Both the position numbers and the translations under genes were made by a program. Below are positions 9,947-55,747 of a stretch of 64,000 nucleotides of DNA, piece after piece. Position 1 is the stretch's first letter; each line of letters starts with the position of its first letter. The DNA is from a virus: positions 40,172 through 104,171 of the IMG/VR virus record IMGVR_UViG_3300042891_000377; one strand, given 5' to 3'. Under the pieces are notes generated by a model. It made no database searches. It had not been told where the DNA came from and was given only the letters and a program-made list of their open reading frames with translations.

Positions 9947-11812
9947 ATGAAGTTAAAATCAATTAAAGTAGCATTAAGTTTAGTTTTAGCATTACCAGCA
10001 GTAGCTTTCGCAGCAGCTGACCAAGAAAAAGCAATGAAAGACGCTAACAACTGGGTTGGCCCACGTGGTCAATACGACAACCAAGGTTACAGTGCATTAG
10101 CACAAGTTAACAAAGGTAACGTTAAAGGCCTTAAAGCTGCTTGGACATTCGCTACCGGTGTAAACCGTGGCCACGAAGGTTCACCAGTAGTTGTTGGTAA
10201 CATGATGTACGTTCACACAGCGTTCCCAAACAACGTTTACGCTCTTGACTTAAACGACAATCAAAAAATCGTTTGGTCTTACTTCCCAAAACAAGATCCA
10301 TCAGTACAAGCTGTATTGTGCTGCGATAACGTTTCACGTGGTCTTGGTTACGGCGACGGTAAAATCTACCTACAACAAAACGATGGTAACTTGGTTGCTT
10401 TAGACGCTAAAACTGGTGCTAAAGTATGGTCAACTTTAATCAACGATCCAAAAGTCGGTGCTACTAACACTAATGCTCCACACGTGATCAAAGATAAAGT
10501 ACTGACAGGTTGTTCAGGTGCTGAATTTGGTGTTCGTTGCTTTATCGCAGCTTACAACTTAAAAGACGGTTCATTAGCATGGAAAGCATACTCAACAGGC
10601 CCTGATGCTGAAATGTTAATCGGCGAAGGCTTCAACAAAGATACACCTGAGTACAGCGCACTATCAGTTTACCAAGACGTAAACGGTGGTAACAAATTAG
10701 GTGGTTCTTTCAACACTATCCCTAATGACAAATTAGTAATTGGTCAAAAAGAGTTAGGCACACGTACATGGTTGAAACCACAAGCAGTTAAAGATGGTTG
10801 GCAACATGGTGGTGGCTCTGTATGGGGCTGGTGGCCGTATGATGCTCGTACAAACTTGGTTTACTACGGAACAGGTAACCCATCAGTTTGGAACCCAGAT
10901 GTACGTCCAGGCGACAACAAATGGTCTATGACTGTTTTCGCTCGTGACTTAGACACTGGCGTTGCAAAATGGGGTATGCAAATGACTCCACACGATGAGT
11001 GGGATTACGATGGTATTAACGAAGTAATCTTGTTCGACAAAGGTGGTAAAACATACGCATGGCACCATGACCGTAACGGTTTTGCTTACACTTGGAATGC
11101 TGGTAACGGTAAATTAGTTGCTGCAGAAAAAGTACACCCATTCGTTAACTGGGCAACTGGTGTTGATTTGAAAACAGGCGTGCCTAACAAATTGGCTACT
11201 GCTTCAACTCACCAAGATTACAATGCAAAAGGCGTTTGTCCAGCTGCTTTGGGTACTAAAGACCAACAACCAGCTGCGTACTCACCAAAAACTGGTTTAA
11301 TTTACACTCCATTGAACCACGTATGTATGACATACGAGCCAGTTGAGTCTAAATACGTTGCAGGTCAACCATGGGTTGGTGCTACATTGACCATGTTCCC
11401 AGGTCCAGACGGTGTAATGGGTGGTTTCGGTGCTTACGATCCAATGACAAACAAAAAAGTTTGGTACAACAAAGAGAAATTCTCTGCTTGGGGTGGTGCT
11501 TTAACAACTGCTTCAAACTTAGTATTCTTCGGTACTTTAGATCGTTGGTTTAAAGCTGTAGATGCATCATCAGGTAAAGAACTATGGAAATTCCAAGTTG
11601 GTTCTGGCGTGATTGGTAATGCATTCACATACGGTCACAAAGGTAAACAACACGTTGGCGTGCTATCAGGTATCGGTGGCTGGGCTGGTGTGGCGATGAA
11701 CCTTGGTATGACTAACCCAACAGACGCTTTAGGTGCTGCTGGTGGTTATGCTGAATTAACAAAATACAACGCGGCTCCTGGCGGCGGTGCATTAACAGTA
11801 TTCAGTCTTTAA
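9947..11812 (+). CDS. xoxF: Lanthanide-dependent PQQ methanol dehydrogenase XoxF
   Basis: 621 aa, full length, with a signal peptide (cleavage near AFA-AAD). It oxidises methanol to formaldehyde or formate in the periplasm, passing electrons to a cytochrome c. Diagnostic residues: the vicinal disulfide Cys125-Cys126 (VLCCDNVSRG), Glu193, Asn311 in GTGNPS, catalytic Asp353, and Asp355 two residues on (HDEWDYDGIN). That extra Asp marks the lanthanide XoxF class; calcium MxaF has Ala there. Repeated W-motif blades of the eight-bladed propeller are present (for example GKELWKFQVGSG). RBS AAGGGAG. Serine codons are TCA/TCT-rich like the porin and unlike most phage genes here. No mxa genes follow. 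pqqA lies 3.6 kb downstream. Confidence 0.97.
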   Translation: MKLKSIKVALSLVLALPAVAFAAADQEKAMKDANNWVGPRGQYDNQGYSALAQVNKGNVKGLKAAWTFATGVNRGHEGSPVVVGNMMYVHTAFPNNVYALDLNDNQKIVWSYFPKQDPSVQAVLCCDNVSRGLGYGDGKIYLQQNDGNLVALDAKTGAKVWSTLINDPKVGATNTNAPHVIKDKVLTGCSGAEFGVRCFIAAYNLKDGSLAWKAYSTGPDAEMLIGEGFNKDTPEYSALSVYQDVNGGNKLGGSFNTIPNDKLVIGQKELGTRTWLKPQAVKDGWQHGGGSVWGWWPYDARTNLVYYGTGNPSVWNPDVRPGDNKWSMTVFARDLDTGVAKWGMQMTPHDEWDYDGINEVILFDKGGKTYAWHHDRNGFAYTWNAGNGKLVAAEKVHPFVNWATGVDLKTGVPNKLATASTHQDYNAKGVCPAALGTKDQQPAAYSPKTGLIYTPLNHVCMTYEPVESKYVAGQPWVGATLTMFPGPDGVMGGFGAYDPMTNKKVWYNKEKFSAWGGALTTASNLVFFGTLDRWFKAVDASSGKELWKFQVGSGVIGNAFTYGHKGKQHVGVLSGIGGWAGVAMNLGMTNPTDALGAAGGYAELTKYNAAPGGGALTVFSL

Positions 11813-12791: not shown

Positions 12792-13793
12792 ATGACGATT
12801 CAACAGATTAAAACGATAATGTATTATGTAGTAATAGCATTTGCTGTATCAATGGCTGGATTAAAACAAGTTCAGGCAGCAGACAAAATGGTCAAAATAG
12901 ACGGCAGTTCGACAGTCTATCCAATATCAGAAGCAGTAGCAGAAGAATTTCAAAAGAAAACAGGGGTTAAGGTAACAGTAGGTGAAAGTGGTACAGGTGG
13001 CGGCTTTAAAAAGTTCTGTCGCAGTGAAACTGACATCAGCGATGCTAGTCGTCCTATTTCACAAAAAGAGATGGATGCTTGTAAAGAAGCAGGTGTACAG
13101 TACATCGAATTGCCCGTTGCCTACGATGCTCTAACTGTAGTAGTAAACAGCAAAAATGGCTGGGTTAAATCATTTACAGTTGAAGAATTGAAAAAAATAT
13201 GGGCACCGGGTAGTTCAGTTAAAAACTGGAATCAAGTAAATCCAGCTTATCCAAATCAACCACTACAATTATTTGGCCCAGGTACAGCAAGTGGTACATT
13301 TGACTACTTCACCGAAGCTATCAATGGTAAGGCAAAATCCAGTCGCAGCGACTACACACCAAGTGAAGATGACAATGTTCTAGTAACTGGTGTAGCAGGT
13401 AATTCGGGGGCACTAGCTTACTTTGGTTATGCTTATTACGAAGAAAACAAAGATAAATTACGTGCCATTCCTATCATTGCTAAGGGCTCAACAACGCCAG
13501 TATTACCAAGTCCAGAAGCAGTTATGAATGGTACCTATCAACCATTAAGCCGCCCACTGTTTATCTATGTAAATGCAACAGCGGCTGCGTTTAGACCAGA
13601 AGTAAAAGCATTTGTAAATTTCTATTTAGAAAATGCACCTAAGTTAGTAAAAGAAGTAAAGTATGTTCCATTACCAGCAGACGACTATGCGGCAGTAACA
13701 GAGCATTTCAAAGCACTAAAACCAGGTACAGGGTTTAACGGTACTCCAGAAGTAGGCATTAAAATTAAAGACTTAATTAAACGAATCAAATAA
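12792..13793 (+). CDS. pstS: Phosphate-binding periplasmic protein PstS
   Basis: 333 aa with a signal peptide ending near VQAADK. Phosphate-binding signatures: [42 protein letters not shown], and [12 protein letters not shown]. The family captures inorganic phosphate for the PstCAB ABC transporter; no pstC, A or B is present, so it would feed the host permease. It has an AGGAGA site and lies between the phosphoesterase and the porin with gaps near 10 nt, indicating one operon. pstS is known as an auxiliary gene in several marine phages. Confidence 0.95.
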
Positions 13794-13802
13794 GGAAACA
13801 TT

Positions 13803-15212
13803 ATGACATTAAAAAATATTATCACAGGTTTATTCATAGCATCAGCATTAATTGCTACACCAGTATATGCAGACAGCACTAACGACATCGTGAATGCGTT
13901 GGTGATGAAAGGCGTGTTAACCGAAGAAGAAGGTGCCTTAATTAACAAAGGTCGTACTGGAGAAACAAGCGCAGTTAAAAAAGAAAAAGATACCACTGTA
14001 CATGCGGCTAGCAAAATGAATATACGTGGCTACTTACAGATACGAAATACTACTATGCTCAGTGGTGACGAAGGAGTTAACCTTTGGTCAGATCGATCTG
14101 TAGGTGACAAAAATTCACTCGCTGACCAAGACAAAAACTTCCTAATTCGTCGTGCTCGTATTATTATATCAGGTTCGGCAGGTGATCGTTTAGATTACTA
14201 TATTCAACCCGACTTTGCTAGTACAGCAGGTACCACAGGTAACGTTGCGCAACTACGTGATGCTTATGGTGACGTGAATCTAACCAAAGATAAAGTGCAC
14301 CGTGTGCGTGTGGGTCAAAGTAAAGTACCATATGGATTTGAAAACTTACAATCTTCACAAAATCGTTTAGCACTTGATCGTGCCGACGCATTTAACAGCG
14401 CAGTACGTGATGAGCGTGATTTAGGTGCGTTCTACTACTACACACCAGATAATGTACAAAAGTTGTTTAAAGAAATACAAGACAGTGGTTTAAAACATTC
14501 AGGTAACTACGGTATGTTTGGCGTTGGTATATATAACGGCCAGGGTGCTAACCAACAAGATCGTAACGATAATTATCATACAGTAGCACGTTTTACTTAC
14601 CCTTGGAAAACAGAAAGCGGACAAATATACGAAGCTGGTATACAAGGTTATACAGGCAAGTATGTAAGAACAGGCAGTGCGTATAGAAGAAACATGGGCA
14701 ACAACGTTTACGCAACTAAAACACCGACATTAGAACCGGGCAACACAACTGGATTTAAAGACGAACGTATGGGTGTAAGTTTTATGATGTACCCACAACC
14801 GTTTGGTATACAAGGTGAGTGGAACTGGGGTAAAACTCCTGGCTTAGATACTGCTGCTAGTACTGATGGTATTATCAAAGAAACTAACTTGAACGGTGGT
14901 TACATTCAAACTATGTATAAAATTGATAACTTTAAAGTATTAGATACCAATGGTACACTAATTCCATTTGTTAGATGGCAATACTTTGATGGTGCGTCAA
15001 AAGCAGAAACTAACTCACCAATGAACAAGGTTAACGATTGGGAGATGGGTGCTGAATGGCAAATCGCGCCAGAGGTTGAACTTGTGGCTTACTATCATAT
15101 GATGAATCGTAGCAACCTAGTAACAGGAGCATCGGCTACTACACTAGTAAAGCAGGACTATGCTAACTTTAAAGCAGATGCCCTGCGTGTTCAACTACAG
15201 TATAACTTTTAG
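13803..15212 (+). CDS. Phosphate-selective porin O/P family protein
   Basis: 469 aa, secreted (signal ends VYADS). An N-terminal helical segment (DIVNALVMKGVLTEEEGALINKG) is followed by a beta-barrel beginning MNIRGYLQIRNT, with FLIRRARIIISGSAGDRLDYYIQPDF, RVGQSKVPYGFENLQSSQNR and a C-terminal LRVQLQYNF ending in Phe. This is the OprO/OprP layout. Together with pstS it suggests phosphate or polyphosphate import through the outer membrane. Codon use is closer to the phage average (AGT serine common) than that of the porin at 8453. Confidence 0.88.
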   Translation: MTLKNIITGLFIASALIATPVYADSTNDIVNALVMKGVLTEEEGALINKGRTGETSAVKKEKDTTVHAASKMNIRGYLQIRNTTMLSGDEGVNLWSDRSVGDKNSLADQDKNFLIRRARIIISGSAGDRLDYYIQPDFASTAGTTGNVAQLRDAYGDVNLTKDKVHRVRVGQSKVPYGFENLQSSQNRLALDRADAFNSAVRDERDLGAFYYYTPDNVQKLFKEIQDSGLKHSGNYGMFGVGIYNGQGANQQDRNDNYHTVARFTYPWKTESGQIYEAGIQGYTGKYVRTGSAYRRNMGNNVYATKTPTLEPGNTTGFKDERMGVSFMMYPQPFGIQGEWNWGKTPGLDTAASTDGIIKETNLNGGYIQTMYKIDNFKVLDTNGTLIPFVRWQYFDGASKAETNSPMNKVNDWEMGAEWQIAPEVELVAYYHMMNRSNLVTGASATTLVKQDYANFKADALRVQLQYNF

Positions 15213-17060: not shown

Positions 17061-17175
17061 TTTAGACCTTTCATAAAAGTTAACTTACAATGTATTTAAC
17101 GCCGATAAACTATATCTATTTATTTTTGGTAGAATTTTGATTGACGAAAATTCCAAAAGAGTAAATAATAGTACT

Positions 17176-19200
17176 ATGATGAAAAATAAACTTAAAAAAC
17201 TCCTAGTCAGTCCGTGGACTGCGTTAATTACATTAGCTGTTATTGTAGTAGTAATCCTACAAGGACCTACATTCGTAGAGTCGGTTAGACTTAGATACTT
17301 TGACACACTGATTAGTGGCAAGGCTCCTACAGAAAATAATATCTATACTGTAAACATAGATGAAGCAACATTAGACAAGTATGGGCAATGGCCATTTAAG
17401 CGTGACAAGTACGCAGACCTAATTGATGACCTGTACAAACATGGCGCTGGCCTAGTTGTTTGGACTGTTATGATGCCAGAAGCAGACCGTCAAGGTGGCG
17501 ATGCGGCCTTGGCATTAGAGTTAGAGGACCATCCAGTTATCCTTACTAACATGCCCAGTGAAAAGTCTAAGAACATCCCACGTAAACCAGGCAGTGCTGT
17601 TATTGGTGACGAGTACAGCGACACAATTATCACCTATCCGGGTATCATTGCTAACATTCCAGAACTAGAACGTAATGCCGCTGGTGTTGGTATTGCTAAC
17701 ACATTCCCAGAGGTAGATGGTGTTAATCGTCGACTACCATTGTTCGTTGGTTATGACAATAACGTATATCCAAGTATTCCGTTAGAAGTATTACGTGTTA
17801 TATCGCAAGACTCAACATTCCAAGTTAAACTAAATGAATTTGGTGTTGAGAAAATGCGCATACCAAGTTTCCGTCCTATCAGCACAGATAGCTTAGGTCG
17901 TATCTGGGTAGACTGGAGTCAAAAGTCAACACAGGTATCAGCAGTCAACTTGCCTACAGACTTTGGTGGTGCTGTGGTTATTGTAGGCCTAAGTGCCGCA
18001 GGTTTAGCTAACCCAGTGCCAACTAGTATCGGTAGCGTATGGCCACAAGATATGCAGGCCGCTGTTATTGGTACGTTAGCTAACAACGTAAACATTGAAC
18101 GTCCATTCTGGGCAGACAATGCTGAACTGTTGGCTCTTATTGTTATCTCACTTATTATTTTAATCTTGAGCCGTTGGGTATATGTTGGCCTAGGAGTTGG
18201 CGTTGTATTGCTTGCGGCAATTACACCTGCAACAATGTATGCGTTTGCGCACTATAACTTCTTGTTTGATGCCATTGTGCCCACAGCAGGCGGTGTACTG
18301 GTTATGCTACACGCTTATGGTGTTAAGTTTATTAGCGAGTTCTTACAGAAACAACAGATCAAGAAACAATTTGGTAGCTACGTTAACCCTACTATTGTTG
18401 AACGCTTACAAAAGAATCCAGAGCTGATTAAACTAGGCGGCGAACGTAAAGAACTTTCAATTGTTATGACTGACCTACGTGGCTTCACAACACTTGGCGA
18501 ATCGTTTGGTGATGATGTAGAAGGACTTACACAGATCATGAATGACTACATGACAGCATTGAGTATTCCTGTGCTAAAGAATGATGGTACTTTAATTAAG
18601 TTTATCGGTGATGCTAGTTTACACGTACACGGTGCTCCGTTGGATGATGCTAATCACGCTAAGACTGCGGTGCGTACTGCACTCGAAATGATCAAAGCCA
18701 TTGAAGACTTTAACGTAGAACTTGTTGCTAGTGGCCGGCCACCGGTTGGTATGGGTGCTGGTGTTAACACAGGTGAAACCTTAATTGGTAACATTGGTGC
18801 TAAGAGCAAGTTTGGTTATGACGTTCTAGGTGACAGTGTAAGTACTGCGGCACGTTTAGAAGGACAAACTAAGTCATATGGTGTGTTACTAATCATCGGT
18901 CCTAAGACTGCTGAATACTGTAAAGATGACTTCCCTGTAGTATGGTTAGACAACATTGCCGTTAAAGGTAAAACTATTGGCTTAGATATCTACACAGTTG
19001 GTCGTACTAATCTTTATATGCACGAGGAGTATCGTAAAGAATATACTCGTGGTAATTGGGGCAAGGCTATTGTATGGGCTAAAAAATTAGTCAACAACGA
19101 TGATGTTGATATTAAACATTACTATGAACTAATGATTGAACGTATGGAACAGGGTGTTCCTGCAAACTGGGATGGCACTTATCACGCCACTTCAAAATAA
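17176..19200 (+). CDS. CHASE2-domain class III adenylate/guanylate cyclase
   Basis: 674 aa from ATG 17176; an upstream TTG at 17137 lies within a probable promoter. Order: N-terminal membrane span, extracytoplasmic CHASE2 domain (YFDTLISGKAPTENNIYTV.. to GSVWPQDMQAAVIG), two or three membrane spans (about residues 320-390), then a class III cyclase domain with metal sites MTDLRGFT and FIGDAS. Two departures from the consensus are visible: the transition-state Asn of VNxAARLE is Ser (SVSTAARLEG), and the usual MAVFG after GDA reads LHVHG. Activity may therefore be altered. The family makes cAMP or cGMP in response to a periplasmic signal. Confidence 0.9.
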   Translation: MMKNKLKKLLVSPWTALITLAVIVVVILQGPTFVESVRLRYFDTLISGKAPTENNIYTVNIDEATLDKYGQWPFKRDKYADLIDDLYKHGAGLVVWTVMMPEADRQGGDAALALELEDHPVILTNMPSEKSKNIPRKPGSAVIGDEYSDTIITYPGIIANIPELERNAAGVGIANTFPEVDGVNRRLPLFVGYDNNVYPSIPLEVLRVISQDSTFQVKLNEFGVEKMRIPSFRPISTDSLGRIWVDWSQKSTQVSAVNLPTDFGGAVVIVGLSAAGLANPVPTSIGSVWPQDMQAAVIGTLANNVNIERPFWADNAELLALIVISLIILILSRWVYVGLGVGVVLLAAITPATMYAFAHYNFLFDAIVPTAGGVLVMLHAYGVKFISEFLQKQQIKKQFGSYVNPTIVERLQKNPELIKLGGERKELSIVMTDLRGFTTLGESFGDDVEGLTQIMNDYMTALSIPVLKNDGTLIKFIGDASLHVHGAPLDDANHAKTAVRTALEMIKAIEDFNVELVASGRPPVGMGAGVNTGETLIGNIGAKSKFGYDVLGDSVSTAARLEGQTKSYGVLLIIGPKTAEYCKDDFPVVWLDNIAVKGKTIGLDIYTVGRTNLYMHEEYRKEYTRGNWGKAIVWAKKLVNNDDVDIKHYYELMIERMEQGVPANWDGTYHATSK

Positions 19201-35118: not shown

Positions 35119-35739
35119 ATGTCAACTTTAGTCCCAATGGTAGTAGAACGTACGAGTCAAGGCGAACGTAGCTATGACATTTATTCACGCTTACTTAAAG
35201 ATCGTATCATCATGTTAGACACTGATGTCAACGAGCATACTGCTAGTTTAATCGTAGCGCAGATGTTGTTCTTAGAAAGTGAAGCACCAGAGAAAGATAT
35301 CTTATTCTACATCAATAGTCCGGGTGGTAGTGTAACTGCTGGCTTGGCAATTTATGATACAATGCAGTTTATCAAATGTGATGTATCAACTATTGTACTT
35401 GGACAAGCATGTTCGATGGGTAGCTTCCTAGCGCAAGCAGGTGCACCAGGCAAGCGTATTGTTCTGCCAGAAGCACGTACTATGATTCACCGTGTTAGTT
35501 CCGGTACCCCCGGTACACGTGGTAGTGTACACGTACAAGACCTACAGTTTGAAGATGCTAAACGTAGCTTTGAAGAAAGTGTGCGTATTAACAAACGCTT
35601 AACAGAACTGTATGCACGTCATAATACTGCTGGTAAAACGTATGACGAACTTTATGAAGCAATGAAGTTTGACACATTTTTAAGTGCAGACGAAGCTGTT
35701 GCCTATGGTCTAGCAGACGAAGTGATTACTAAACGTTAA
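35119..35739 (+). CDS. clpP: ATP-dependent Clp protease proteolytic subunit
   Basis: 206 aa. The triad is readable as Ser99 (GQACSMGSF), His124 (TMIHRVS) and Asp185 ([11 protein letters not shown]); [20 protein letters not shown] is highly conserved. Compared with E. coli ClpP the handle region after His124 is about 12 residues longer ([15 protein letters not shown]..), and there is no propeptide. ClpP pairs with ClpX or ClpA unfoldases, here presumably from the host. With the tmRNA gene 5 kb downstream, a phage-directed degradation route is possible. The next gene starts at its stop (TAATG). Confidence 0.96.
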
Positions 35740-36809
35740 TGACCAAATTATGCCTTGACTTTATCACCGAATCAACACAGCCATTATTTACTGTTTTAAT
35801 TGATGGCTGTGTAGTATCGGCAGTAGTAAACGATAAAGAATTAACTATATCAGCCGATTTACAATACGGATTCCATACACTGGCTATTTCAGTAACCAAT
35901 CCATCGTCACCTATTGTATTCACTGATGCAAAATTAGATGGAGTTAGTTTCCGACAAACGTTATATACAATGTTTGCTAATAAGCAATGCAAAAGACAAA
36001 CAACAACTTTAACAATCACTGATAATATATTATATCTTCCATTTATTAATCCGATAGCGGTATGGATTGCATCCTGCGCAGAAAAAATTCCTGCAAAATT
36101 ATATGCGCATAGTTTGTATGATGAATTTGAAATTTATTATCCCGAATCTATAGTTATTCCTACTAGTTTTCCAAAAATACTACAAGATTATATGTTGTGT
36201 AATACAGACTTTTATATGCATGCTAAATCATTATTATTAGATCCGTATTATAACGCAGAAGTACCGTATGCAAAACTTAGTAAATTAACATATGATGATA
36301 CTGCATTGTATACTGAATTATTTGCAAATTTAGAATTCTTTAAGAATAATGCACGTACACCAGCGCAGAGCAAATATAACAAATTAGAAACAAGTAAATC
36401 TGACTGGAGAGTGTTTGATTTTATTCTTGAAAAAAACATATTGCCCGAGGCACAGTTTCCTGCCCTCTATAAGTTATTGCATGATCTTAATTTAGATGAA
36501 ATATTACATGGATTTATAGGTATACTTGGCCCAGGTGAATACATAACCCCGCACGTTGATCGTTACGAGGGTATGGAATTTATAATAGAAAAATATGGTG
36601 GTTGTGGACAGCTATATATTCCTGTGAACTTTAAAGAAGGCAACTATTTTAAATTTAATAATATTGGATTAGTTCCGTTAGATGGTCCAATGTTAATTAA
36701 TACTCAACATTTTGCTCATGCATTAATAAACAATAGTAATGAATATCGATTTGCAATAGGTATACACGGATCTCGACTACATATTACAAATAAAGATGAT
36801 AATGGCTAA
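35739..36809 (+). CDS. Putative Asp/Asn-hydroxylase-like oxygenase
   Basis: 356 aa. The C-terminal 110 residues resemble the hydroxylase fold: GPGEYITPHVDRYEGMEF (HxD), GQLYIPVNFKEGNYFKF, and NTQHFAHALIN (distal His), with Arg in EYRFAIGIHGS. The N-terminal 230 residues are unassigned. It overlaps the radical-SAM gene by 8 nt, so the two oxidative enzymes are co-translated. Substrate unknown; a peptide or virion protein is possible. Confidence 0.62.
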   Translation: MTKLCLDFITESTQPLFTVLIDGCVVSAVVNDKELTISADLQYGFHTLAISVTNPSSPIVFTDAKLDGVSFRQTLYTMFANKQCKRQTTTLTITDNILYLPFINPIAVWIASCAEKIPAKLYAHSLYDEFEIYYPESIVIPTSFPKILQDYMLCNTDFYMHAKSLLLDPYYNAEVPYAKLSKLTYDDTALYTELFANLEFFKNNARTPAQSKYNKLETSKSDWRVFDFILEKNILPEAQFPALYKLLHDLNLDEILHGFIGILGPGEYITPHVDRYEGMEFIIEKYGGCGQLYIPVNFKEGNYFKFNNIGLVPLDGPMLINTQHFAHALINNSNEYRFAIGIHGSRLHITNKDDNG

Positions 36810-38109
36810 CTCTAACGTATTCTGTAATACACCTTGGTATGAGGCTCACATCTATTGGGATGGCAGCTTTGGTACCTGTTGTCAAGAGAGTAGGAAATTA
36901 TACGCAGAATCTGAAACACAATACAACATTAAAACAATGTCTTTAGCAGAATGGTTTAATAGCAGACCTGCTAGAGAATTTCGTATGGATATGTTTAGCA
37001 ACGAAGGCACTGTTACGTGTAGTCAATGTTATAACGAGCAAGGGGTAAGTGGTACAAGTCGTAGACATCGCAGTAATCAAAAAAGTGTAATTTTTACAAA
37101 GCAGGCATTTGGTGAAAGTTTCAAACAAAGTCCAGGTTATAAACAGTTCATGTTTAGTAAAGGTATGGATGGTATGACTAACACTATGCCAATTGATCTA
37201 CATATTGATTTAGGTAACTATTGCAACTTAGCTTGTAAGATGTGCTGGTCTGGTGCAAGCAGTAAAATTGCAACTCAATATGTCAAGTGGGGGAATGAAG
37301 AACATAAACAATATCTTGGTAGTGATTGGACTAAAGATACAGAAACGTGGAATAGATTCTTAAATGAATTACTAACCATTCCTAAACTAAAAAATATACA
37401 TTTAATGGGCGGTGAAACTTTACTAACAGGTCAATTTGAAGAATTAATTGACTTTATGACTGCACATAATAGATTTGATGTATGCTTTAGTTTTGTCACT
37501 AACGGAACAAAGTTTAATGAATCACTAATTAACAAACTAAAAAAATTTGCACGAGTAGGCATCGAAGTAAGTATAGAAACTGTAACTGCGCATAATGATT
37601 ATGTTAGGCAAGGTACTAATACAGCAATAGTATTAGAAAATATACAAAAATATATACAGCACTGTACTGATACGTCAGTGTCGGTCACTATACGTCCTGC
37701 TATAAGCGCATTAACAGTTGGTTATTATTATACGTTATTAGAATATTGTTTAGAACATAAGTTGATGATTAAAAGTTTGCTCGTAACAACTCCAAAATAT
37801 TTAGACATTAAGGTGTTGCCGTATGCAATTAAACAAAACTATCTGCAACACTATACAACTATAGTAGATCAGCTAGCGGACATTGATATTGATATTGATT
37901 TTAACGAGAGTGATGCAGGTAATTATAAAAAATCTATTAAACAACAGGCTATGCAAATGATCAATATACTTACACCTGTATTGATAGATAACGAAGATGG
38001 CTTACCAGAATTAGTTACTATGTGCAAAAAATGGGATACTGAATATAAATTCGATGCAATTACATTATATCCAGAATTAACCAAGGTGTTTGATCAGTAT
38101 GGATACTAA
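36802..38109 (+). CDS. Radical SAM protein with cysteine-rich (twitch/SPASM-like) region
   Basis: 435 aa from ATG 36802. The [4Fe-4S]-SAM motif is CNLACKMC (C-x3-C-x2-C) near residue 142, followed by LMGGETLL and FVTNGT of the radical SAM barrel. Preceding it are FCNTPWYEAHIYWDGSFGTC and CSQCYN, a twitch/SPASM-like cysteine set placed N-terminally. Such enzymes modify peptides, tRNA or cofactors. T4-like freshwater and marine phages carry relatives, from memory. Coupled to the upstream oxygenase and to the beta-rich protein downstream. Confidence 0.85.
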   Translation: MANSNVFCNTPWYEAHIYWDGSFGTCCQESRKLYAESETQYNIKTMSLAEWFNSRPAREFRMDMFSNEGTVTCSQCYNEQGVSGTSRRHRSNQKSVIFTKQAFGESFKQSPGYKQFMFSKGMDGMTNTMPIDLHIDLGNYCNLACKMCWSGASSKIATQYVKWGNEEHKQYLGSDWTKDTETWNRFLNELLTIPKLKNIHLMGGETLLTGQFEELIDFMTAHNRFDVCFSFVTNGTKFNESLINKLKKFARVGIEVSIETVTAHNDYVRQGTNTAIVLENIQKYIQHCTDTSVSVTIRPAISALTVGYYYTLLEYCLEHKLMIKSLLVTTPKYLDIKVLPYAIKQNYLQHYTTIVDQLADIDIDIDFNESDAGNYKKSIKQQAMQMINILTPVLIDNEDGLPELVTMCKKWDTEYKFDAITLYPELTKVFDQYGY

Positions 38110-40198: not shown

Positions 40199-40441
40199 AT
40201 GAAAGTAAGCGTTTTATTAACAGCAGTATTATTAGCAGTTGCAAGCATTGCATCAGCTGAAGAAGTTAAACAGAACACTAACACTCAACATCAACTATCA
40301 AAACGTCCTTATGCAGCGCCTGCTGTAGATAAGGAAACATTTGATGGCGCGGTTGTTGATAAAAAAGAAGTAGAGAAACCTACACATTTAAATTTACACA
40401 TGTTGGGTAAGCGTCCGTTTATGGAAAAAGCGACTGACTAA
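40199..40441 (+). CDS. Small secreted protein with KRPY/KRPF repeats
   Basis: 80 aa with a signal peptide (MKVSVLLTAVLLAVASIASA). The mature part carries two similar motifs, HQLSKRPYAAP and HMLGKRPFMEK, separated by about 45 residues. Strong AGAGGAGAAG ribosome site. It ends one base before the predicted tmRNA acceptor piece. Function unknown; the repeated motif could be a processing or binding site. Confidence 0.65.
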   Translation: MKVSVLLTAVLLAVASIASAEEVKQNTNTQHQLSKRPYAAPAVDKETFDGAVVDKKEVEKPTHLNLHMLGKRPFMEKATD

Positions 40442-40795
40442 AGAAATTGTTGTAGCCGTAAGGCAAAGTTGTAAAGTAAGGCATGTTGGACGGCGGTTCG
40501 ATTCCGCCCAGGTCCACCAAAAGTATATTGTCACTAAGGTCCCGTAAGGATTATGTCTTTGGCGAGATAGTATGCTTCTGATGGGCCTGACCAGGTTTCG
40601 ACAGCGTGAGATAGGATAACAACTCAACACGTGGGGTCACGTAAAATACAAATCTTGTAAATGCAAAAACATCTACAACTGGTGCTGTAAAAGTATCTAT
40701 GGGTCGTGGCTTCCGCTTCGGTTCTGCTACTCGTACAGCAACGTTTGCCTAAGAAACAAACACCACGGGGTAACTATACCTTGTAATCAAAAATA
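40442..40795 (+). ncRNA. ssrA: Circularly permuted (two-piece) tmRNA gene
   Basis: The acceptor piece comes first: the T arm GGCGG-TTCGATT-CCGCC (40492-40508), then CAGGTCC and encoded ACCA (40509-40519). After a 63-nt intervening segment the 5' end of the coding piece starts GGGCCTG (40583-40589). These pair as a 7-bp acceptor stem with G3-U70, the alanine identity element. P2 is formed by CAGCGTG (40602) with CATGTTG (40482) and ACAACT (40619) with AGTTGT (40467). A GCC-GTAA-GGC hairpin opens the acceptor piece. GGTTTCGACAG is the conserved D-region. The order 3' part, spacer, 5' part is the permuted arrangement known from alphaproteobacteria, cyanobacteria and some betaproteobacteria. Confidence 0.93.
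40663..40752 (+). other. Predicted tmRNA tag reading frame
   Basis: The resume codon GCA (40663) lies 23 nt after the CGTAAAA element, against 24 nt in E. coli. The frame runs 29 codons to TAA (40750-40752), starting AKTSTTGAVK and ending TATFA. Most bacterial tags are shorter (about 10 residues) and end LAA or VAA, so this tag is long, basic and has an unusual end. A second frame (QKHLQLVL, stop at 40688) is less likely because it lacks the Ala resume codon. Confidence 0.6.
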
Positions 40796-40797
40796 GT

Positions 40798-40826
40798 AGA
40801 AAGCTCACTTCGGTGGGCTTTCTTTT
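40798..40826 (+). terminator. Terminator of the tmRNA gene
   Basis: AGAAAGCTCAC-TTCG-GTGGGCTTTCT followed by TTTTT. The -35 of the next promoter follows within a few bases. Confidence 0.88.
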
Positions 40827-40829
40827 TGC

Positions 40830-40858
40830 TTGACATTTTGATTAACTGAGTATATAAT
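40830..40858 (+). promoter_or_regulatory. Sigma70-type promoter
   Basis: TTGACA-17 nt-TATAAT; the spacer end ACTGAG-TA is shared with the promoter at 57944. Confidence 0.85.
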
Positions 40859-40892: not shown

Positions 40893-42101
40893 ATGAGCTA
40901 TCCAGACAAAGATCCTAAAGATATTTATGGACAAGACCTTATTAAGGTATTTGGACCGCAGGCACAGCGTAGACATATCAGTACGTTGACTGCACAAGAA
41001 AAGCAAGCTATCTTGGACAAAGTACCCGACTATGTTGAGACAGACGATTTAGGTAATAGACCTAGCTTTTTTCAAATTACCAATAAGATACTTTGGGTGC
41101 TACAACAAACACAGGCTTTAAATGGTATTGATTTAGATTGGTGCCCAACATTAGCTAACCGTGCAATGAAACGCCACCCGGATCATTATTTTCCTGTAAA
41201 TAAAGCATATAAAAATAATTCAGTACAGCGTGGTATATGGTTACGTCACTTACTAGGCGATATTTTATTTCAATTTGACCCAAATCATGTGCTTATGGGT
41301 TTAGCACGTAAACTAAGCGATGGCACAGCTAACTTAAATAACGGGCAACATCGTACAGTAGGTTGTATTATTATAGGTATTAGAGAAGTGCCCATTGAAT
41401 GGCAAGAAAGTGATTTAGAAAGTGTTGACGTAGACTTGTATGCGACTGATAACCTACACACCCTTTCAGCTAGTCCGTTTGATGAGTTCCGTATCCAAGT
41501 GCGCCGTAATCAAGTGCGTAAAGCAGAAGGTCGTACAGACCTTATTGCAGATGATATTAAATGTGAACATATCTTTGATATTCATGCACGATATGGCAGT
41601 CGTTTTGTAGAAAAAGGCCAGGAAGAAACATTAGCACGTGAATGTACAGGTGTTGGTAACATGATCAAATACTATGACACATATGGTGCTGATATCTACG
41701 AACGTGCTGTTAGTATCTGTTGCAGTGTGTTTTCTAAGGCTACACTAGCAACTGGTAATGCTTGGGGCTTAATGGAGTTTTTACGCGAGCAAACCAATAA
41801 TGGCAGTTGGGAAAATCCCGCCGAGTTAGATTGGGCTGTTCAACAATCGCTACTATACAAATATAGCGATCCTAAGAAAAGTGGAATGCATTTAGATATT
41901 AAAAAAGCGTTTGTTGATTTCCTAGATAACTCTAGTAAGGCAAACTTGTATATGGATTGTCCAGAGCCTCGTAGAATTGCTGGCGGAATTCTTAAGTTAT
42001 GCCAAACATCTAACCCAGAATTAACATGGGCACCAGTTAACTATCAAGGTCGAGATGTATTAGATGCACTCAAGTCATTCTTTGTAATGCCTAAGGCCTA
42101 A
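40893..42101 (+). CDS. ParB/sulfiredoxin-fold protein
   Basis: 402 aa. LARKLSDGTANLNNGQHRTVG near residue 150 contains the (D/N)GQHR motif of ParB-like nuclease or NTPase domains, with preceding elements YFPVNKAY and IRHLLGDILF-type helices. Phage relatives are often annotated ParB-like nuclease. The C-terminal half is helical and unassigned. It is followed after 1 nt by an HNH protein, suggesting a DNA-processing pair. Exact activity unknown. Confidence 0.68.
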   Translation: MSYPDKDPKDIYGQDLIKVFGPQAQRRHISTLTAQEKQAILDKVPDYVETDDLGNRPSFFQITNKILWVLQQTQALNGIDLDWCPTLANRAMKRHPDHYFPVNKAYKNNSVQRGIWLRHLLGDILFQFDPNHVLMGLARKLSDGTANLNNGQHRTVGCIIIGIREVPIEWQESDLESVDVDLYATDNLHTLSASPFDEFRIQVRRNQVRKAEGRTDLIADDIKCEHIFDIHARYGSRFVEKGQEETLARECTGVGNMIKYYDTYGADIYERAVSICCSVFSKATLATGNAWGLMEFLREQTNNGSWENPAELDWAVQQSLLYKYSDPKKSGMHLDIKKAFVDFLDNSSKANLYMDCPEPRRIAGGILKLCQTSNPELTWAPVNYQGRDVLDALKSFFVMPKA

Positions 42102-42704: not shown

Positions 42705-44613
<1,909 letters not shown>

Positions 44614-52916: not shown

Positions 52917-54146
52917 ATGACCACATACTCGAAACGATTTTCAATAGCACACTGGGATAGACTCTCAGAAGAACATGCTGATGCTTATTATACAATGTTT
53001 AAGAATGCAAGTCCTGAATTTTTAGACAATATTCACGATATCTACTTTGGCAAATACTTTTACTATAATTACAATGGTGTAGATAAACGATGTGGAAATC
53101 CAATGGGAGTCGAAGCATCGGACACTCACATTGATTACCTATTTAAAATACAAGAAGAACTTGGTGTTGAAATATCACTTACATTTAACACTGTTCAAGT
53201 ACCGCACGAAGTAATATTCAATTACGAAATTAGACAACAGTTTGTGCAATGGATTGGTTCATATTATGATCGTGGATTACGTAGTTGTACTATGTCAAGC
53301 GAACACATATTGCGTACAGGTGAGTTACAAACACGCTGCCCTGATATGCGATGGAAAAGCACAGTAAATCAAATTGTATCCGACGCACAGCAATTTATTG
53401 ACTATGCGTATCTTGGATACAATACTATTTTATTAGACAGAAGTTTAAATAGAAACATTAAAGAACTTAAAAAGATTAAGAAGGCACAGGACTATCTTAA
53501 TGGCAAAAACCCCCAAAAGAAATTACTAACATCATTGCTGATTGCCGAAGCATGTGTTTACCATTGCCCGTTTAAGAAAGAACACGATAGCGTAGGCGAA
53601 GTTATAAGCACTGAGTATTTTAGAGATGCCGCCAATCTTTCGTGTAATGGCTGGCGTGGTTCGGAAGCATTTAAACAATTACCGCGAGTGGGCATTGACT
53701 TAGTTGCTGTTGATGCAAAAACATTAAATCAATTTTTAGATCTAGTTGATATATTTAAATTCTCCGGACGATTAACTCAAGCACCATTCCTTGCTAAAGA
53801 TGCCAAGTATGCTAAAGCAGTATGGTTTTATAAGACACAAAAACTAGATCAACAGAACACAAATATTGGCAACACAGTATACGCAGATAACTATAAAGAT
53901 ATAGTCGATAATAATCTTGCACCGTTACACGATTGGATTCCTGGTTGGATTGATACACGATTTACTAAAGAAGATTATAAAACAACTTACACAATTTATA
54001 CTGGCATATGGTCGACTGCTCCGGGTAAGAAGTTAGAGAAACTATTAACAACGTGTAGAAATCAGTGTTGGGATTGTCATCAATGCGAACGTACATTTGG
54101 TACAGATGATATCGATTCTGCATTGCAACTAAGGAAAGTAGTATGA
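52917..54146 (+). CDS. Unknown protein, weakly U32-peptidase-like
   Basis: 409 aa from ATG 52917. Cys-rich at the end (CRNQCWDCHQCERTFG) and with EACVYHCPFKKEHDS in the middle. The progression LTFNTVQVP, RSCTMSSEHIL, NTILLDRSLNRNIKELKKI and LLIAEACVYHCPF recalls the barrel and cysteine arrangement of the U32/UbiU-UbiV family, which can hold an iron-sulfur cluster. The similarity is a by-eye impression only. Overlaps the halogenase start by 4 nt, so the two may act together. Confidence 0.5.
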   Translation: MTTYSKRFSIAHWDRLSEEHADAYYTMFKNASPEFLDNIHDIYFGKYFYYNYNGVDKRCGNPMGVEASDTHIDYLFKIQEELGVEISLTFNTVQVPHEVIFNYEIRQQFVQWIGSYYDRGLRSCTMSSEHILRTGELQTRCPDMRWKSTVNQIVSDAQQFIDYAYLGYNTILLDRSLNRNIKELKKIKKAQDYLNGKNPQKKLLTSLLIAEACVYHCPFKKEHDSVGEVISTEYFRDAANLSCNGWRGSEAFKQLPRVGIDLVAVDAKTLNQFLDLVDIFKFSGRLTQAPFLAKDAKYAKAVWFYKTQKLDQQNTNIGNTVYADNYKDIVDNNLAPLHDWIPGWIDTRFTKEDYKTTYTIYTGIWSTAPGKKLEKLLTTCRNQCWDCHQCERTFGTDDIDSALQLRKVV

Positions 54147-55747
54147 GAAACAAAATTGAAAGAATAACTATTGTAGGAGGCGGCAGTTCGGGATGGATGA
54201 CAGCGGCTGCTATATCAAAACAATTACCACACGTTAAACTTACTCTAATCGAGTCGCCCAATATCCCAACAATTGGAGTAGGCGAAAGTACAATCGGACA
54301 GATAAACGAATTCCTTCACTATCTTGGTCTTAAAGATGAAGATTGGATGAAGCACTGTAACGCAACATATAAGACATCAATTAAGTTTATCGATTTTAGA
54401 GAAAACCCAACAGAAAAGCCACACGTATTTCATTACCCGTTTGGTAGATATGACTTTACTGATAAGCCCAGAGGTCTAATGGAATGGTTTATTGGTGCCG
54501 CAACACTACCTAATATTGATCCATATTCATTTGCAGAATTTTATCACGATCAGGTTATAATGACTGATGCAAATAAAATGACAAAGAATGAGGATCATCT
54601 AATACGTGGATTTAATTTTAAATCCGACACAGCATATCATATGGATGCAACTCTATTTGGTAATTATCTACGTGACCATTTATGTTTGCCGGTGGGTATG
54701 ACACATATTCTAGATAACGTGTTAACCGCAACAATGGATGCAAAAGGACACATTGATACTATTGTAACTGAAAAGAATGGTGAGCTAACAGCAGATTTGT
54801 TTATTGACTGTACGGGTTTTAGATCACTATTACTTGAACAAACATTAAAAGTTCCATTCATATCATTCCATGACACACTATTAAATGATAGCGCAGTAGC
54901 AGGTGTTATTCCATATATCGATAAAGATAAAGAAATGGAGTGCGTTACAAGTTGTACTGCAATTGAAGCAGGATGGGTTTGGAATATCCCTTTGTGGGAT
55001 AGACTTGGCACGGGGTATGTTTACTCAAGTAAATTTGCAACAAAAGAACAAGCAGAAGAACAATTTAAAAATCATTTAAAATCTAATAGAATGACAGTAC
55101 AAGATGTTGCACGTGTTGACGCAATGGAAGTTCGACATATTGCTATTAAACATGGTGTACATGAACGTACCTGGGAAAAGAATGTTATTGGTATAGGTCT
55201 ATCAAATGGATTCATTGAGCCACTTGAATCAACTGGTTTAATGCTTACACATGAATGTATTATTAAGATGGTAAATCTACTCAAAATGCGCAATGGCAGA
55301 GTTACGCGGTTTGATGTTGATGCATTTAATTTTGCATTTCGTGAACAAATTACAGGATTTAAAGACTTTATCAGTCAGCACTATGCCTTGTCTATGCGTA
55401 ATGATAGTGCATACTGGAATCATGTTAGTGAAGAAACTACATATTCACAACAGATGTATGATTTTAAAGCTGGCGTATTAGGTTCATACAATGATATTGC
55501 ATATCGACTTCATAGGTCGCGTGTAGTAGGCAACGACATGGGCGGAATAGCATATATCATTGCAGGCATGGGGCACAACGTTATTGATAGTAGCAGAGTA
55601 GATTTTAATAATAATCAGTACAGCGAACCCGTTGATATGGCTACTAATACATGGAACACATGGCGCGAACACCGAGCACAAACTGTTAAAGTTGTCGATG
55701 CATTACCTACACATTACGCATTTCTAAAAAGCACAATATATAAATGA
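54143..55747 (+). CDS. FAD-dependent tryptophan halogenase family protein
   Basis: 534 aa. FAD-binding GGGSSGW at residues 12-18, VGESTIGQINEFL, the Lys77 equivalent of the catalytic lysine (ATYKTSIKF), and the halogenase signature WVWNIP near residue 274. The family uses FADH2, O2 and halide to chlorinate or brominate aromatic rings. No flavin reductase is encoded nearby. Coupled to an unknown protein upstream and a DUF2061 membrane protein downstream. Related genes are known in marine cyanophages; the true substrate in phages is unknown to me. Confidence 0.9.
   Translation: MRNKIERITIVGGGSSGWMTAAAISKQLPHVKLTLIESPNIPTIGVGESTIGQINEFLHYLGLKDEDWMKHCNATYKTSIKFIDFRENPTEKPHVFHYPFGRYDFTDKPRGLMEWFIGAATLPNIDPYSFAEFYHDQVIMTDANKMTKNEDHLIRGFNFKSDTAYHMDATLFGNYLRDHLCLPVGMTHILDNVLTATMDAKGHIDTIVTEKNGELTADLFIDCTGFRSLLLEQTLKVPFISFHDTLLNDSAVAGVIPYIDKDKEMECVTSCTAIEAGWVWNIPLWDRLGTGYVYSSKFATKEQAEEQFKNHLKSNRMTVQDVARVDAMEVRHIAIKHGVHERTWEKNVIGIGLSNGFIEPLESTGLMLTHECIIKMVNLLKMRNGRVTRFDVDAFNFAFREQITGFKDFISQHYALSMRNDSAYWNHVSEETTYSQQMYDFKAGVLGSYNDIAYRLHRSRVVGNDMGGIAYIIAGMGHNVIDSSRVDFNNNQYSEPVDMATNTWNTWREHRAQTVKVVDALPTHYAFLKSTIYK

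What the first reader, a model, noticed from the sequence alone, without database searches (positions are those of the whole stretch)
40442..40797. Circularly permuted tmRNA gene in a phage
The 3' acceptor half (T arm plus encoded ACCA) precedes the 5' half. A 7-bp acceptor stem with G3-U70 and two P2 helices form only between the two pieces across a 63-nt intervening segment. Permuted ssrA is known in three bacterial lineages; I do not know of a well-described phage example, though phage one-piece tmRNAs exist.
Basis: partly seen in the sequence, partly recalled or inferred. Interest (0 to 1): 0.85.

Follow-up and report, generated by a model that had tools for sequence, protein, structure and literature searches.

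The report
Phage two-piece tmRNA, unusually long tag
A large environmental phage carries its own two-piece ribosome-rescue RNA (tmRNA), a type already known in phages, but the peptide tag it encodes is about three times the usual length and carries a motif conserved across related phages and not found in bacterial tmRNAs.

Summary
In detail: a complete circularly permuted tmRNA gene lies at about 40427-40843 (ARAGORN; Rfam tmRNA_permuted 83.9 bits, cut-off 47), inside a 104-kb phage record with replication and virion genes. The acceptor stem is 7/7 with G3-U70 and shows compensatory changes in related phages. The claimed novelty fails: two-piece tmRNAs in phages are published (phage Melnitz; 53 predicted among public phages). 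It is 29 aa (AKTSTTGAVKVSMGRGFRFGSATRTATFA), against a usual 10 or so. The motif KV[SAT]MG[RK]xFRF matches 29 times in 2.9 million viral contigs, always in such a tag; its one match in 84,980 bacterial and archaeal species genomes is not in a tmRNA. Its codons show peptide-level purifying selection (pN/pS 0.36; 1 of 1000 column shuffles as low), while the C-terminal LAA degron drifts (ATFA, AVLA, AVLV). Other phage lineages carry different long tags. The phage encodes ClpP, GroEL and DnaK; larger relatives add a ClpA-like unfoldase; none encodes SmpB. Best reading: working trans-translation using host SmpB, with a phage-specific extended tag. Delivery to phage ClpAP is plausible but untested.

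The parts
40427..40843 (+). circularly permuted tmRNA gene as called; ends of the precursor not known
   Evidence: ARAGORN; Rfam RF04321 40467-40692 and RF01850 40433-40725
40467..40519 (+). 3' piece: P2 strands, T arm (40492-40508), acceptor 3' strand (40509-40515), encoded ACCA (40516-40519); mature 5' end not known
   Evidence: sequence; covariance model; acceptor pairing
40520..40582 (+). intervening segment, presumably removed; its two ends pair and extend the acceptor stem in the precursor
   Evidence: fold of the segment -17.1 kcal/mol; same end-pairing with changed sequence in most relatives with a segment longer than 30 nt
40583..40662 (+). start of the 5' piece: acceptor 5' strand (40583-40589), D-arm remnant, P2 strands, stretch before the resume codon
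40663..40752 (+). tag reading frame, 29 codons plus TAA: AKTSTTGAVKVSMGRGFRFGSATRTATFA
   Evidence: ARAGORN; translation; the corresponding frame is open in 20 distinct tag regions including this one
40690..40719 (+). conserved core of the tag extension, KVSMGRGFRF
   Evidence: 29/29 viral-contig matches of the motif lie in tmRNA tags; pN/pS 0.36 over the 14-codon core, 1/1000 column shuffles as low
40766..40783 (+). conserved hairpin after the tag, CGGGGUA-ACUA-UACCUUG
   Evidence: alignment of relatives, including a U to C change that keeps pairing in L213 and L225
40798..40823 (+). intrinsic terminator at the gene's 3' end
   Evidence: 11-pair stem followed by T run
35119..35739 (+). ClpP protease subunit, Ser-His-Asp positions kept, insertion near the handle
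   Evidence: Pfam PF00574 219 bits; NCBIfam NF001368 above cut-off; alignment to solved ClpP. Relation to the tmRNA inferred from co-occurrence only
42976..44613 (+). GroEL chaperonin
   Evidence: NCBIfam TIGR02348 803 bits; conserved downstream neighbour of the tmRNA in relatives. Context only

Best explanation
This is a working phage-encoded two-piece tmRNA. The precursor is transcribed to the terminator at 40798-40823. tRNA-processing enzymes cut out the 63-nt intervening segment, leaving a 3' piece ending in CCA and a 5' piece, held together by the acceptor stem and P2. Host alanyl-tRNA synthetase charges it through G3-U70, and host SmpB loads it on ribosomes stalled on broken messages. 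The stalled product then receives a 29-residue phage-specific tag instead of the usual short one. The N-terminal two thirds of the tag (T..VKVSMGRGFRF) is kept by selection on the peptide, so it is probably bound by something. The leading candidate is the Clp protease the phage group brings along (ClpP here, ClpA-like in larger relatives), so that rescued host fragments are degraded under phage control. Shown: gene structure, covariation, tag conservation, gene content. Inferred: expression, processing, charging, tagging. Conjecture: the tag's receptor.
For: tmRNA call by two methods. Acceptor 7/7 in the phage genes checked, with compensatory exchange at 4-69 and 5-68 and G3-U70 invariant (one of 18, L212, was mis-assigned by the script and is set aside). 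Terminator. Single-copy gene in a phage. The tag motif is found only in such tags: 29/29 viral contigs; one match among 84,980 bacterial and archaeal species genomes, with no Rfam tmRNA in that stretch; no match in 50,697 phage records. Selection acts on the peptide: pN/pS 0.36, column-shuffle mean 0.90, 1/1000 as low; serine kept through TCT-AGT exchange. ClpP in 11/11 related phage records first tested; ClpA-like ~770-aa unfoldase in 9/12 records, with a ClpP-docking IGF loop in the two read.
Against: No expression, processing or tagging data. No SmpB in 12/12 phage records, so it depends on the host. ClpA and ClpP also occur in relatives whose tag is the ordinary short one (G012, G369, G371), so there is no exclusive link between the long tag and phage ClpAP. 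The ClpA-like gene is absent from this 104-kb record; by synteny it would lie beyond the record's end. The structure prediction of the tag was inconclusive (pLDDT 61).
Confidence: 0.82

Rival explanations
1. Ordinary trans-translation: the tag is read by the host's ClpXP through its C-terminus, and the extension is only a tolerated linker.
For: Many relatives keep ALAA or AVAA ends (L231, L205, L216); L214 carries what looks like a complete ordinary tag (AANDSAVLLAA) after the extension.
Against: The extension is the conserved part and is under peptide-level selection, while the C-terminus drifts to ATFA, AVLA and AVLV, the reverse of what is expected for a linker before a ClpX degron.
Confidence: 0.3
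2. The extension is conserved as RNA (structure or protein-binding site in the tmRNA), not as peptide.
For: The first codons after the resume point are conserved at the base level, for example GCA AAC GCA AAT ACA TTC in the type III tags; types II and III give no significant codon signal (354 and 250 of 1000 shuffles as low).
Against: In type I, variation concentrates in synonymous positions and conservative replacements (S to A/T, R to K, G to N/D); type II shows a similar peptide pattern with different codons.
Confidence: 0.12
3. An inhibitor: the phage RNA sequesters SmpB or competes with the host tmRNA, as the tag-less tRNA-like molecule of phage DS6A is thought to do.
For: Precedent in DS6A (PMC4131195, PMC11915505); no phage SmpB.
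Against: The reading frame, resume region and stop codon are all kept and the tag is under selection; an inhibitor would not need them.
Confidence: 0.06
4. Host DNA: a bacterial ssrA next to a provirus, or an integration-site remnant.
For: ssrA is a common integration site (PMC9004378 and PMC11915505); the window holds metabolic genes such as a methanol dehydrogenase.
Against: The gene sits among phage genes in a neighbourhood shared with other phage records; the tag motif was not found in a bacterial tmRNA; acceptor and tag are intact and vary with the phages.
Confidence: 0.03

Closest known systems
Two-piece tmRNA of methylophage Melnitz and other marine phages (PMC9004378)
   Same: Phage-encoded, circularly permuted; methylotroph host known for Melnitz and suspected here
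   Different: Melnitz's ssrA groups with Alphaproteobacteria and has a predicted glutamine riboswitch in its 3' domain; this one passes Rfam's beta model by 0.3 bits and Rfam found no riboswitch in the window; an extended tag was not mentioned in the passages read
Bacterial permuted tmRNA (Rfam RF04321, RF01849-RF01851; PMC11915505)
   Same: Gene order, acceptor and P2 pairing across an intervening segment, resume region UAAAUGCAAA
   Different: Tag 28-33 aa with a phage-specific motif; the most frequent tag length in the database is 10 aa (PMC11915505)
Mesoplasma florum SsrA tag (PMC9382460)
   Same: Longer than the E. coli tag, ends in -FA rather than LAA, and is matched to a different protease (Lon)
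   Different: Unrelated sequence; bacterial; one-piece gene (own knowledge); here the protease is not known
Huge-phage translation suites with tmRNA and SmpB (PMC7162821)
   Same: Large phages carrying tmRNA as part of host translation control
   Different: No SmpB in this group; the tag peptide was not discussed in the passages read

Membership tests
Circularly permuted (two-piece) tmRNA | 3' tRNA-like half precedes the 5' half in the gene | tested here: met
Circularly permuted (two-piece) tmRNA | Covariance-model score above the curated cut-off | tested here: met
   RF04321 83.9 bits, cut-off 47
Circularly permuted (two-piece) tmRNA | 7-bp acceptor stem with G3-U70 and CCA | tested here: met
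   7/7, encoded ACCA, compensatory exchanges in relatives
Circularly permuted (two-piece) tmRNA | Open tag frame after the resume region, with stop codon | tested here: met
   29 codons plus TAA
Circularly permuted (two-piece) tmRNA | Precursor processed to two pieces | not testable with these tools
   needs RNA-seq or Northern blot
Betaproteobacterial subtype (RF01850) | Score above the family's cut-off | tested here: inconclusive
   84.3 bits against a cut-off of 84; the model's final hairpin is forced onto the tag region with several broken pairs
Canonical SsrA tag read by ClpXP | Short tag (about 10-14 aa) ending in LAA | tested here: not met
   29 aa ending in TATFA
Complete phage trans-translation system | Phage-encoded SmpB | tested here: not met
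   0/12 records, control genomes positive; records may be fragments
Phage ClpAP partner system | ClpP with catalytic triad and ClpA-like unfoldase in the same phage | tested here: inconclusive
   ClpP present in the window; ClpA-like in 9/12 records but not in this partial one

The most novel reading that the evidence does not exclude
A class of large phages has re-addressed ribosome rescue: their own tmRNA appends a long phage-specific peptide that is recognised by a phage-encoded ClpA-ClpP protease or adaptor, so that nascent host proteins are captured and recycled, or handled otherwise, under phage control. Several phage lineages have evolved different such address peptides.
Probability: 0.27. 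Interest if true: 0.85.

Novelty: new variant of a known kind. Interest (0 to 1): 0.55.

Why it matters
Phage-encoded tmRNAs have been counted, but what phages gain from them is unknown. A long tag whose extension, rather than its LAA end, is conserved, found in phages but not in the bacterial genomes searched, is a direct handle on that question: it predicts a receptor, and the phage group carries an obvious candidate protease. It could also supply degradation tags orthogonal to bacterial ones.

Tried and rejected
A Pfam scan of four long tags found nothing above background, and a resemblance I saw by eye to cold-shock domains got no support there. AlphaFold2 on the aligned tags was inconclusive, so a beta-hairpin guess from the alternating pattern is not claimed. 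A weak match of a type II tag to a Vibrio phage protein (E = 8) lies inside an ordinary coding gene and was dismissed. An exclusive association of the long tag with phage ClpA/ClpP was tested and not found. The class- and order-level bacterial surveys gave few permuted genes, so they are a weak control for betaproteobacterial tags. A second loose pattern scan returned mostly unrelated loci but gave the type II tags.

Full report
What is there. The window is 40172-104171 of a 104,171-bp IMG/VR virus record. ARAGORN calls one RNA gene in it, a permuted tmRNA at 40427-40843, and Rfam gives tmRNA_permuted 83.9 bits (cut-off 47) and beta_tmRNA 84.3 bits (cut-off 84). Two things can be added. The ends of the 63-nt segment pair with each other and extend the acceptor stem in the precursor, and most relatives with a segment longer than 30 nt keep this pairing with different sequences. 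A terminator ends the gene at 40798-40823. In related phages the acceptor stem changes in step (GGGCCTG/CAGGTCC, GGGGATG/CATCTCC, GGGGGTG/CACCTCC). In that script one of 18 genes, L212, was matched to a wrong upstream segment and is set aside.

It is a phage. The record encodes DNA primase, DnaB-like helicase, both ribonucleotide reductase subunits, a virion structural protein similar to T4-like cyanophages, tail-fibre proteins and DNA ligase. The tmRNA lies about 2.1 kb upstream of a groEL gene, and this order is repeated in related phage records.

Novelty of the permutation. It is not new. Melnitz, a cultured myophage of an OM43 methylotroph, has a two-piece ssrA, and 53 of 133 distinct phage tmRNA structures were predicted to be two-piece (PMC9004378). 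Among the 490 loci fetched here ARAGORN finds 159 permuted genes in viral loci, with 99 distinct tags; these loci overlap, so this is a count of loci, not of phages.

The tag. The tag is 29 residues, AKTSTTGAVKVSMGRGFRFGSATRTATFA. The most frequent tag length in the tmRNA database is 10 (PMC11915505). A degenerate DNA pattern for the core, KV[..]MG[..]xFRF, matches 29 stretches in the whole viral collection. ARAGORN calls a permuted tmRNA with this tag in 22 of them. In the other seven the tag follows the same resume motif: L210, L215, L221 and L227 also keep a 7/7 acceptor stem, and L220, L229 and L232 are identical to L215 over the tag region. The same pattern matches once in 84,980 bacterial and archaeal species genomes, with no Rfam tmRNA there, and the tag has no tblastn match in 50,697 phage records. 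So the motif is specific to these uncultured phages as far as the collections go.

Selection. In 12 distinct 14-codon cores pN/pS is 0.36, against a mean of 0.90 when alignment columns are shuffled, and 1 of 1000 shuffles is as low. The conserved serine is kept through a TCT-AGT exchange; replacements are conservative. By contrast the C-terminus varies: ALAA, AVAA, AVLA, VALA, AVLV, TATFA. This inverts what is known of bacterial tags, where the LAA end is the conserved part (PMC9382460). L214 carries the extension followed by what looks like an ordinary tag (AANDSAVLLAA), which suggests that the extension arose as an insertion in front of a normal tag (inference).

Other long tags. The survey shows at least three further long-tag types in phages: AKTSTGEVTVSGKNVKFSARSAQRQSLAV and kin (type II), which resembles the present type in pattern with different codons; AKANTFEYFQVPVSISANDEFAIAA and kin (type III); and ANANTFDFSAMSFTGNTVRGAANESRFALAA and kin (type IV). 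The codon test is not significant for types II and III (354 and 250 of 1000 shuffles as low) and was not run for type IV, so peptide-level selection is shown only for the present type. A pattern for the resume region plus an extension starting A[NK][AT][NS]TF, which fits types III and IV but not the window's own tag, matched none of 399 Pseudomonadota genomes; how many betaproteobacteria that sample held is not known.

Partners. ClpP is encoded at 35119-35739 with its catalytic residues. All 11 related phage records first tested carry ClpP. Nine of twelve records carry a ~770-aa AAA+ protein; in the two read, the best NCBIfam match is ClpA (about 830 bits, below the equivalog cut-off of 993), with the IGF loop that docks on ClpP. 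In this record it is missing, but in relatives it lies about 44-46 kb downstream of the tmRNA, which would be past the record's end (inference from coordinates). DnaK (L003:17472-19388) and GroEL complete a protein-quality-control set. SmpB is absent from all 12 records. ClpA and ClpP also occur in relatives with ordinary tags, so co-occurrence alone does not prove that ClpAP reads the long tag.

How it most likely works. Host enzymes process and charge the RNA, host SmpB loads it, and stalled chains receive the long tag. Lytic infection would be expected to break many host messages, which would make rescue valuable; the Melnitz authors propose that phage tmRNA helps maintain the hijacked machinery or tags host proteins for recycling (PMC9004378). 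A different tag-protease match has a precedent in Mollicutes, where a longer tag ending in NYAFA is read by Lon (PMC9382460). I put about 0.82 on a functional tmRNA with a selected phage-specific tag and about 0.27 on delivery to a phage-encoded protease or adaptor.

Limits. Everything is from sequence. Relatives are metagenomic contigs, some nearly identical, so effective sample sizes are smaller than the counts; the selection test used distinct sequences only but not a tree. The host is not known; an XoxF-like methanol dehydrogenase gene at 9947-11812 (672 bits to solved XoxF) suggests a methylotroph.

Noticed in passing
window 9947-11812: A gene for a lanthanide-type (XoxF-like) methanol dehydrogenase, 621 aa, in a phage record; best solved-structure matches are XoxF and nothing comparable is in the phage collection. 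Possible auxiliary metabolic gene.
   Followed up: partly
window 12792-15212: PstS phosphate-binding protein followed by a phosphate-selective porin O/P family gene.
   Followed up: no
window 17137-19200: CHASE2 domain plus adenylate/guanylate cyclase catalytic domain protein, 687 aa, in a phage record.
   Followed up: no
L003:17472-19388: DnaK (Hsp70) gene in the same phage record; PHROGs lists its family as unknown function.
   Followed up: partly
L249:1132-3441 and L248:1138-3447: Divergent ClpA-like unfoldases encoded by related phages, with a ClpP-docking IGF loop.
   Followed up: partly
L210, L215, L221: Related phage tmRNA genes with a non-canonical T loop (GGCAGTG, GGCAGAA, GGCGGAG in place of TTCGATT) that ARAGORN does not call, although acceptor stem and tag are intact.
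   Followed up: partly
L106, L160, L163, L325, L327, L328, L342, L374, L420, L439: Other phage tmRNAs with different long tags (types II-IV), several with an ordinary tag following the extension.
   Followed up: partly
window 35739-38109 and 54143-55747: Asp/Arg hydroxylase-like and radical SAM/SPASM genes next to clpP, and a tryptophan halogenase-like gene.
   Followed up: no
window 40830-40858: Perfect 12/12 sigma-70-type promoter (TTGACA-17-TATAAT) just after the tmRNA terminator, presumably for the gene at 40893.
   Followed up: no
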